Shown here piece after piece: positions 22,801-25,800 of a stretch of DNA of 64,000 nt. How positions within the stretch are numbered: position 1 is the first letter of the stretch; each line of letters starts with the position of its first letter. The position numbers and the translations under genes are program-made. The notes beneath the pieces are model-generated. The model was not told the origin of the DNA. It made no database searches and saw nothing but the letters and a program-made list of their open reading frames with translations. Source of the DNA: Tubulanus polymorphus (Eukaryota > Nemertea > Palaeonemertea > Tubulaniformes > Tubulanidae); the NCBI RefSeq assembly GCF_964204645.1, contig NC_134027.1, forward strand, positions 23,858,485 through 23,922,484. The letters are read 5' to 3'.

Positions 22801-25800
22801 AAATCGAGATAGAATCTCGCACTTTTTAGCAACTGCACTTATTGAAAATTGCAGCAATTCCAAGTAAGATTGTTCCTTGTCTATGAAACTGGACCCAGTT
22901 TCATGATAAGTGAAGCAGTTGAAATAGTTGAATTCCACTTTCGTTAGTAATCAGTCCACGCTAAACTCTCACAAATCCTAAATCTACGAGCAAATACTAC
23001 ACTATATCAACACGATCAGTGCATTCTACATCCTCCAAATACAAAGGCCATACTTCGGTTTTCGTTACTGAGTTTACTAGTCCGTATCAGAACCTTATGT
23101 CAGTTAGTTTGAACTTAAGTCCCCATACGGCGAACCACACAACTGTGGCCGTAATATGGGGCGTTCCATTATCAATTCTGACCACAACTAATTAACTTAA
23201 GAACGAAAACCGAAGTTTGCTGAGGAGGAGAGCCACCCTCGGAATATCAAACACGTCTAAAACTATCGTCAATTTCAATTCGTTAGTCTAACACGCATCG
23301 AGAAACCTCCGGCCGGAATATCTCTACAGAGTAAACACTATAGACTCGGTGTTCAAATCGGATAGCTTTCGACCGTAGAAAATGTGTCGCGACTATCAGA
23401 GCAAGAAGATGACCATCGGTTAAAACACTATATCCGCGTTGTGACGATAATATGAAGAGAATCCAACAATAATAACGAAAACAAAAATAATAAATATCAA
23501 AAATGCCAAAATAATAACAAAAAAAAAATAATAATAAACATAAAAAATCCCAAAATAATAACGAAAAAAAAATAAAAATATTAAAAATCTACAATAACGA
23601 AAAAAAAAAAAATAAATATTGAAAATCCACAATAACGAAAAAAAATAATAAATACTAAAAATTTCACAATAAAAACAAAAATAAAATGGATAACAAATAT
23701 TAAATTCTGAAAATACTTGGTCGAGCTTGTAGTTTATTAGACATTTCGACTTCGACTTCGATTTCTAATAGTCATCTTCAGGAATACCGAGGAATACTCA
23801 GTATTCCCGAAGACGACAATTAGAATATAGTCGAAACGTCGAATAAACTACTAGAGCTCGAGGAAACATTTTCGGACTTGAAATAAAATATTTTTTTCAT
23901 TATTCAGATATTTCAACGAACATCCGAGAGTCGAACAGTGATCTCCCCGGCTTTCACAAGATCCGACTTGAACCGCGAGTCTACCGTACAGAACAATCCA
24001 TGCATAAATATCTATATCTATATATATATATATATATATCGGCATATCTCGATCGGCTACGTAAGAATGCGAATAGAATTTCATCGACGGTTTTTTTCAT
24101 TTCTTTCGAAATTCGCCAAAAAAATCATTCGCCTAATTTTCGCTACTCGTCGGTTTTGCACAGTAATGAAATAGGTCAGCGCAGGCCTAGGCTACGTAAG
24201 TTCATGCAACGAGGAACCGACCATTCCACCAGATGGCGCCGAGAGAAATAGTTTTCCACTAAGACGGCAGTATCATCTATCATACAGAATGTTTATAACT
24301 ATGCCAAATGCACTCTTGATTTGAACAACAAACTACATAAAAACGTTCATAAAAGATTAACTTTCTTAGAATTTTTTTTCAAACAATTTTTAAACTTTAA
24401 CGCCACCTGGTGGATCATTGACAGCCACAGCAGCGAGCAGGACTCACTTGTTCAAAGGTGTTCACCAATCTTTGAGCAGGTTTGGGTTCCGCAGCACAGG
24501 ACTTCAGATAAGACCGATCAATCCAAATTCAGACGATATTGGCAAGTACTATAGGAATGTATGTGAAGGAAATGCGCAATTTTTGGGTATGCTCTGCGCA
24601 TTTGCTAGGCTCAGTCGGCTCCGTAATGATGACTTGGTCGCAAACCATAAGTTGGAGGCTATAGAACCAAAATTGGTTTAGATTTTGACTACGCAACAGG
24701 GCTCTTAGGGGCTTTATTCCGAGACTGGTCGTGATTATTTAAGATTAGCTACGTGCCAAAATGAGCAGAGCCGAGATCAGTTTCATGACAGAATTTCCAA
24801 CTACTGTCCGTATTGAAAACACAAGGCAAAAGAAAAAATTTTGAATTCGAATGAAACTACTGGGGCTGGTTCCTCAGTTGAGACTTAAGTCCGAAAATGG
24901 TCTTAAATTTCAAGACTGGTCCTAAGTTGTTAGATTGGTTATAGAACTAAGATGGTCTTAAATTGGTCTTAAGTCTAAGCCATGACTATGGAACTGGGCC
25001 CTGGGGCCGGTTGCATAGTCATGGCTTAGACCTAAGACCAGTCTAAGACCAACTTAGTTCTATAGCCAATCTAACATCTTAAGACCAGTCTTAAGATTTA
25101 AGACTACTTTTGGACTTAAGTCACGACTGTGCAACAGGCCCCTGGAAATTGGTCTTATCCGAAGTTTCAACCGTGGAACCGGATGTGCCGGATGTCTGCT
25201 GGTCGGGTGCGCGGTTCCCCGTGTGGGTACACGTATCTACGGTTCATACACTAACAAATAAATGTGCTTACTGTGCGTCCGATTCGTGGTATTTACGCGG
25301 ACGGCCGCGCGTCAAGTGACGTCGTCTGACGAACTCCACGTCGTCGACCATCCAAAACGAACCGAAATCGTCTTCGTATCTTACGAAACATTTATGCAGG
25401 GACAAATTGGTGCGAATAGCGTTCTGAACGGTGTGCGCGCGTGTGTGCGTGTGTGCAGAGGTTGAACGAACGAACGAACGGACGGACGAACGGACGGGAT
25501 ACGCACGAACGCGTTGAGTGTATGTGCGAGATATAACAGAGCGCGCGAGAGAGAGAGAGAGAGAAAGAGAGAAAGAAAGAAAAAAAACAAGAGTCAAAAA
25601 CCGGTGTTAAAGCAACGAAGCTTATAGTAAAAAAAAAATTAAAAGACATACCCGCCGACTTTCTGCGGACGTCGCTTGTAAAATTCCACCTCGTCGACGG
25701 TCCACACTGCCCCTTTGACATTTTCAACGCGCATAAAGCATTTGTGAAGACTAAGGTTGTGTCGGACCGCGTTCTATATCAAAATGAATGAACATACAAA

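What the first reader, a model, noticed from the sequence alone, without database searches (positions are those of the whole stretch)
25268..25773. Tandem alternative forkhead exons in FoxP (12A and 12B)
Two exons, 228 bp apart, both start with Asn-Ala in phase 0 right after exon 11 and encode alternative versions of the DNA-recognition half of the forkhead domain (22/35 identical). A continues to exons 13-15; B carries its own stop. Alternative forkhead exons are reported for Drosophila FoxP and for vertebrate FOXP1, including its embryonic stem cell isoform, and have been attributed to a tandem duplication at the base of Bilateria. Here the pair is preserved with B as an alternative last exon, so one gene makes two transcription factors of different DNA-binding surface and C-terminus.
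Basis: partly seen in the sequence, partly recalled or inferred. Interest (0 to 1): 0.85.

Follow-up and report, generated by a model that had tools for sequence, protein, structure and literature searches.

The report
Ancient alternative DNA-binding exons in FoxP
This animal's FoxP gene carries two interchangeable exons for the DNA-reading half of its protein, the same old switch known from flies and vertebrates, and its sequence suggests that the second exon is an in-frame swap for the first rather than a dead end with its own stop.

Summary
Confirmed: in FoxP (minus strand), exon 11 (ends 29425, phase 0) faces two tandem acceptors, A (25773) and B (25423), encoding alternative recognition-helix halves of the forkhead (22/35 identical). 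The kind is known (FOXP1 exons 18/18b; Drosophila FoxP exons 7/8). B agrees with published Drosophila exon-8 primers at 22 of 23 residues (A: 16) and with a human 18b guide at 5 of 6 (A: 1). A private A/B duplication is rejected (AU p 0.0095). B has Thr where all 24 other Fox recognition helices read from this genome have the base-contacting His.
Correction: B's 'own stop' TAA lies inside a donor-like ACA|GTAAGC that would end B at 152 nt in phase 2, A's phase. B therefore more likely joins exon 13 in frame as a mutually exclusive internal exon, as in vertebrates; an alternative last exon, as in Drosophila, remains possible.
Inferred: the A-B intron has a 195-nt AG-free zone and its four branch-point-like sites lie within 58 nt of A's donor, which could sterically forbid A-B splicing; A+B, and skipping both, shift the frame. 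B adds an AT-hook-like RGRPRK tail (below Pfam's cut-off).
No RNA evidence was available. New member of a known kind.

The parts
37663..37743 (-). FoxP zinc-finger/coiled-coil exon, 5' part (FOXP-CC positions 1-27); exon donor at 37673
   Evidence: Pfam PF16159 genome scan 34.3 bits; letters; donor
36821..36908 (-). FoxP leucine-zipper exon (FOXP-CC)
   Evidence: PF16159 44 bits, cut-off 28.9, for 36821-36916; acceptor at 36908, donor at 36821
29425..29526 (-). Exon 11: first half of the forkhead, ends in phase 0, shared by both isoforms
25652..25773 (-). Exon A (12A): canonical recognition helix NAVRHNLS..., 122 nt, phase 0 in, phase 2 out, donor CGG|GTATGT
   Evidence: 35 of 38 residues as human FOXP1
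25424..25651 (-). Intron between A and B, 228 nt: four YTNAY sites with their A at 13, 24, 45 and 58 nt from A's donor, long CT tract, 195-nt AG-free zone (25620-25426)
25272..25423 (-). Exon B (12B): alternative recognition helix NAIRTNLS..., 152 nt if the donor is used, phase 0 in, phase 2 out
25409..25411 (-). Thr codon replacing the base-contacting His of the recognition helix
   Evidence: role of the His
25289..25309 (-). AT-hook-like RGRPRKY in the tail of B
   Evidence: Pfam AT_hook 15.0 bits, under the cut-off of 17.4; 0.06% of shuffled tails
25266..25271 (-). Donor-like GTAAGC that contains B's in-frame TAA (25270-25268)
20307..20376 (-). Exon 13, shared C-terminal exon; joins in frame to A or to B cut at 25272
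17445..17578 (-). Exon 14 ([11 protein letters not shown]...)
16471..16810 (-). Exon 15, coding part to the stop

Best explanation
A and B are an old pair of mutually exclusive forkhead exons of FoxP, orthologous to vertebrate FOXP1 exons 18/18b and Drosophila FoxP exons 7/8. Choosing A gives the canonical forkhead. Choosing B swaps the recognition helix and wing, replaces the base-contacting His by Thr and adds a basic AT-hook-like tail, so the factor should read a different DNA site. B most likely ends at the donor-like ACA|GTAAGC and joins exon 13 in frame (both exons phase 0 in, phase 2 out), so both isoforms keep the same C-terminus; if that donor is not used, translation stops at the TAA inside it. 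Exclusivity is probably kept twice: the branch-point-like sites available to B lie 13-58 nt from A's donor, mostly too close for both to be used, and A+B or skipping both shifts the frame. Shown: exon sequences, phases, orthology of B with Drosophila exon 8 and the human 18b fragment, His-to-Thr. Inferred: that either exon is transcribed and used, use of B's donor, the distant branch points, the DNA specificity, any tissue control.
For: Exons, splice signals and phases. Orthology: 22 of 23 Drosophila exon-8 residues and 5 of 6 human 18b residues equal B, against 16 of 23 and 1 of 6 for A; B groups with the Drosophila fragment 96/93 inside FoxP 95/97, and an A+B-only clade is rejected, AU p 0.0095. 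All 24 other Fox helices read here have His where B has Thr, a residue described as base-contacting. FOXP1-ES, which uses 18b, keeps the frame and prefers CGATACAA over GTAAACAA. The donor at 25272 is the only GT with a positive score in B and ~300 nt beyond and has A's phase. Longest AG-free zone of 3,571 YAG-ended gaps in the window, and no YTNAY in the last 170 nt; OGDH precedent for distant branch points. 13 of 22 identical residues use different codons; pS 0.94, pN 0.28 between A and B.
Against: No RNA data. B's donor is weaker (1.66) than six other donors of the gene (3.36-6.36) and lacks G at -1; a phase-2 site this good before the first stop arises in 4.1% of random walks (weight table recalled). 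Drosophila exon 8 is a last exon. The AG-free zone consists of simple repeats poor in AG; one YTNAY site, at 58 nt, is above the ~50-nt threshold, and the sites at 13 and 24 nt lie before the AG at 30. The AT-hook match is under the cut-off. No MBNL-type motif enrichment. The tree has 48 columns and most forks are weak; a clade of A, B and Drosophila B is not rejected (p 0.09).
Confidence: 0.65

Rival explanations
1. B is an alternative last exon with its own stop and 3' UTR, as in Drosophila; the B isoform ends ...HESDAQ and lacks exons 13-15.
For: In-frame TAA at 25270-25268; Drosophila exon 8 is a last exon; an AATAAA lies 550 nt after the stop at 24718, with further polyA-like hexamers at 23738, 22260 and 21839; B's donor-like site is weak.
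Against: The stop is embedded in a donor-like site of exactly A's phase; vertebrate 18b is internal and keeps the frame. The polyA-like hexamers are too common to discriminate.
Confidence: 0.28
2. B is an unused relic of the old duplication.
For: No RNA was seen; pyrimidine content at B's acceptor is modest (0.59 in -20 to -4; six other acceptors 0.41-0.82).
Against: Open frame with B-specific residues shared with Drosophila and human, and intact acceptor.
Confidence: 0.04
3. A recent tandem duplication private to this lineage, not the old pair.
For: A and B are adjacent and alike; the tree rests on short sequences.
Against: A+B-only clade rejected (AU p 0.0095); all 6 A/B differences covered by the Drosophila primers, and 4 of 5 covered by the human guide, go with B; A is closer to human FOXP1 (35 of 38) than to B (22 of 35).
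Confidence: 0.02
4. B was captured from another Fox gene.
For: Tandem pairs could in principle arise by exon shuffling.
Against: B's best other match in the genome is A (41.6 bits; others at most 21.6), and it falls in the FoxP clade (93/95, 95/97).
Confidence: 0.01

Closest known systems
Vertebrate FOXP1 exons 18/18b (FOXP1-ES; mouse 16/16b)
   Same: Mutually exclusive exons for the forkhead's recognition half; the second one alters critical residues and keeps the reading frame. B shares 5 of 6 residues with the human 18b guide. Phase allows the same here.
   Different: B's donor contains a stop codon; usage unproven; MBNL control has no visible motif support here. Whether the human donor looks alike was not tested.
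Drosophila FoxP exons 7/8 (isoforms A and B)
   Same: Tandem alternative halves after a shared exon; 22 of 23 residues readable from primers equal B, including the Thr.
   Different: Exon 8 is a last exon in the fly; here B has a donor-like site in A's phase.
OGDH exons 4a/4b, distant-branch-point mutually exclusive exons
   Same: Short intervening intron, long AG-free zone, long pyrimidine tract and branch-point-like sites close to the upstream donor.
   Different: Unrelated gene. Branch points are mapped there (25-41 nt from the donor) and only predicted here (13-58 nt).
AT-hook proteins (HMGA type)
   Same: GRP core with basic flanks, beside a major-groove DNA-binding domain.
   Different: Below the Pfam cut-off; binding untested.

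Membership tests
FoxP transcription factor gene | FOXP zinc finger/coiled coil (PF16159) upstream of the forkhead | tested here: met
   47.6 and 34.3 bits, both places in this gene, the only two in the genome scan; 44 bits for the exon, cut-off 28.9
FoxP transcription factor gene | FoxP-type forkhead | tested here: met
   The seven best solved-structure matches of both A and B are FOXP1-4 chains; exon 11+A 79.6 bits and exon 11+B 69.7 bits against Forkhead
FoxP alternative forkhead exon pair (18/18b; 7/8) | Two tandem exons of equal entry phase for the recognition half after one shared exon | tested here: met
FoxP alternative forkhead exon pair (18/18b; 7/8) | B-type residues (NAIRTN, FVRYE, D[DE]FGSF, WMVDD) | tested here: met
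   22 of 23 and 5 of 6 published residues; full published B proteins were not available
FoxP alternative forkhead exon pair (18/18b; 7/8) | Both isoforms expressed | not testable with these tools
   no RNA data held
FOXP1-ES-like internal frame-preserving exon | Donor in the same phase as the first exon | tested here: inconclusive
   ACA|GTAAGC in phase 2, score 1.66, chance 4.1%; use not shown
Distant-branch-point mutually exclusive exons | Branch points within ~50 nt of the upstream donor, with a long AG-free zone | tested here: inconclusive
   AG-free zone 195 nt; YTNAY at 13, 24, 45, 58 nt, none in the last 170 nt; no lariat data; repeats confound
AT-hook | GRP core with basic flanks scoring over the Pfam PF02178 cut-off | tested here: not met
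   Core and flanks present (RGRPRK; description) but 15.0 and 14.1 bits against 17.4; hence 'AT-hook-like' only

The most novel reading that the evidence does not exclude
The FoxP A/B switch is hard-wired by RNA geometry: B is spliced from distant branch points placed against A's donor, so A and B cannot be joined. B's donor holds a stop codon, so one exon gives either a full-length B factor or a short one. B moreover couples a recognition helix lacking the otherwise invariant His with an AT-hook-like minor-groove arm. If other FoxP genes share the geometry, it would explain how the pair has stayed exclusive since early bilaterians.
Probability: 0.25. Interest if true: 0.62.

Novelty: new member of a known kind. 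Interest (0 to 1): 0.4.

Why it matters
The A/B switch changes the DNA code of a factor tied to stem-cell state in vertebrates and to learning in flies. A further animal with a possibly frame-preserving B exon bears on whether the ancestral B exon was internal (vertebrate style) or terminal (fly style). The short A-B intron with apparently distant branch points is a concrete, mutable hypothesis for how exclusivity is kept.

Tried and rejected
Capture of B from another Fox gene: rejected. A third copy of the exon: none listed, with the caveat that gaps and masked stretches of the assembly cannot be excluded. Motif enrichment in the 300 nt before A, the A-B intron and the 300 nt after B (names of the factors recalled): MBNL, CELF, RBFOX and NOVA types not enriched. 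The PTB type is enriched in the A-B intron (12 against 5.7, P 0.013), which is its CT tract, and after B (5 against 1.0, P 0.007), where the stretch overlaps a repeat element; I do not use either as evidence of regulation. More B exons: none confirmed in viral contigs (39 pattern matches) or genome contigs (573), as expected of collections without animals. Naming the organism through mitochondrial COX1: no match in the assembly. Solved structures for B's tail: none at E up to 10. A structure prediction was not run, since the spliced protein is not one contiguous stretch of the window. Santos 2011, which defines the system, is not held; Gabut 2011 I did not look up and know only through reviews. 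Papers were seen as search listings or passages only; none was read whole.

Rows dropped: the tree used 21 of the 24 genomic helices (L004, near-identical to L002, and L015 and L018, cut by exon ends, left out); the tree used 9 of 24. The human 18b fragment (6 residues) was left out of both trees as too short. Of the 30 forkhead matches outside FoxP, 28 were fetched; the two left (C4:15270429 and C11:8775563) match only the first half.

Full report
What is there. The window is part of contig C3 of a 268-Mb assembly. The gene on the minus strand is FoxP: the only two FOXP-CC matches of the genome scan lie in it, and the best solved-structure matches of A and of B are FOXP1-4 chains. Exon 11 (29526-29425) ends in phase 0. 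Exon A (25773-25652) and the start of exon B (25423) are separated by a 228-nt intron. A and B share 22 of 35 residues; 100,000 shuffles of B reached at most 11. Joined to exon 11, A scores 79.6 and B 69.7 bits against Pfam Forkhead, cut-off 27. The genome search with B lists B, then A, then four weak Fox matches.

The stop of B. B reads [51 protein letters not shown] and then TAA. That TAA is inside ...GCACA|GTAAGC. Cut there, B is 152 nt and ends in phase 2, as does A (122 nt, CGG|GTATGT). Exon 13 (20376-20307) begins with the one base needed: A gives GG+A (Gly), B gives CA+A (Gln), after which both read [23 protein letters not shown] and on through exons 14 and 15 to a stop ending at 16471. 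In B and the next ~300 nt this is the only GT that scores above zero. It is moderate: 1.66 against 3.36-6.36 for six other donors of the gene; 3.4% of the 3,841 GTs of that strand score as high, and a phase-2 site this good before the first stop occurs in 4.1% of 200,000 random walks in the window (weight table recalled). A review states that inclusion of vertebrate exon 18b maintains the reading frame (PMC11701043, passages), whereas Drosophila exon 8 is a last exon (passages of PMC4070984, PMC7776582, PMC6372147). I therefore prefer an internal, frame-preserving B and keep the last exon as rival. Polyadenylation-like hexamers exist downstream (first at 24718) and do not decide.

Orthology. 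Primers for Drosophila exon 8 printed in PMC4070984 and PMC7776582 translate to [23 protein letters not shown] and WMVDDN: 23 positions, of which 22 equal B and 16 equal A; all 6 A/B differences covered go with B. The human 18b guide in PMC8189919 translates to DEFGSF: 5 of 6 equal B, 1 of 6 equals A; of the 5 A/B differences covered, 4 go with B and 1 with neither. In a tree of recognition halves (16 rows, 48 columns) B joins the Drosophila fragment (96/93) inside FoxP (95/97). An A+B-only clade is rejected (AU p 0.0095); a clade of A, B and Drosophila B is not (p 0.09), and A with vertebrate FOXPs is weak (80/53). Short data: this supports, but does not prove, a duplication before the split from vertebrates; the human fragment is the main further support. 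Between A and B pS is 0.94 and pN 0.28, and 13 of 22 identical residues use different codons, as expected of an old, constrained pair.

What B changes. PMC7062188 (passages) describes the core DNA-contacting residues of the Fox recognition helix as strictly conserved across family members, with the His-equivalent bonding to the thymine of the fourth base pair of RYAAAYA. All 24 other recognition helices that I could read in this genome have His there (24 of 28 fetched stretches contain the helix), and so does A; B has Thr, as does Drosophila exon 8. FOXP1-ES prefers CGATACAA where FOXP1 binds GTAAACAA. Aligned by their ACAA ends these differ at the fourth position, the one read by the His, and at the first two. 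That human 18b also has Thr is recalled. B further adds RGRPRKY: a GRP core with basic flanks is the AT-hook description of PMC11354804 (passages). [RK]GRP[RK] appears in 0.06% of shuffled tails, but Pfam AT_hook gives only 15.0 bits against a cut-off of 17.4, so this is AT-hook-like only. A search for FOXP1-ES, exon 18b, FoxP and AT-hook showed no paper joining the two among the 12 of 234 listed.

How exclusivity may be kept. Upstream of B's acceptor there is no AG for 195 nt. Of 3,571 YAG-ended AG-free gaps in the window (both strands) only B's own is that long; of 6,812 gaps of any kind 4 reach it. The six other acceptors measured have 27-86 nt. The four YTNAY sites of the intron lie at 13, 24, 45 and 58 nt from A's donor and none in the last 170 nt (chance 0.003 by a Markov model of the segment, 0.027 by the window's rate). 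In OGDH, branch points 25-41 nt from the upstream donor, below a ~50-nt steric threshold, enforce mutual exclusion across an intron with a long pyrimidine tract (PMC7969005, passages). By analogy A and B could hardly be joined here. Against this: the zone is made of simple repeats poor in AG, two sites (13, 24) lie before an AG at position 30, one (58) is over the threshold, and the acceptor of the leucine-zipper exon also has no YTNAY within 120 nt, so absence of the motif alone proves little. As a second safeguard, A+B and skipping of both shift the frame and meet stops 13 and 20 codons on. No paper linking FoxP to branch-point-enforced exclusivity appeared among the titles listed (10 of 18; 8 of 103); PMC7969005 does not mention FOXP1 in its main text.

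Regulation. MBNL1 represses human 18b, but YGCY motifs are not enriched near A or B, so vertebrate-type control cannot be assumed. Nothing here shows when or where either exon is used.

Verdict. The pair is a new member of a known kind; the distant-branch-point layout, the stop in the donor and the AT-hook-like tail are hypotheses worth testing.

Noticed in passing
window 24862-25142: A near-perfect foldback repeat (140-nt arms, 85% complementary, 1 nt between) starts about 125 nt after B's stop; the genome scan lists 137 matches (both strands of the same places count) from 3,091 first-look candidates of which 40 were scored, so it looks like a mobile hairpin element.
   Followed up: partly
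window 28038-28783 and 27208-27276: Intron 11 holds a tandem array (periods about 46, 79, 112 and 191) built on a 'gacatccat' motif, and a 69-nt AT run.
   Followed up: no
window 1275-1637 and 4227-4619, + strand: Exons of a dynein heavy chain C-terminal domain (98 and 143 bits), a gene running towards FoxP's 3' end.
   Followed up: partly
L002, L004, L005 (G000:C1:2291239-2335451): Three forkhead genes within 45 kb with FoxG-like domains; L002's best solved-structure match is FOXG1 (224 bits against 149 for the next), and L002 and L004 are nearly identical: a local FoxG expansion.
   Followed up: partly
window 19126-20094: Coding-like tandem repeat ([12 protein letters not shown] and variants) open in several frames on both strands, in the intron between exons 13 and 14.
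   Followed up: no
window 52300-53373, - strand: 357-codon open frame with His and Gln runs, repeats of KSIDQYGG and an LDLSL motif; no Pfam match. Possibly a 5' exon of FoxP or of another gene.
   Followed up: no
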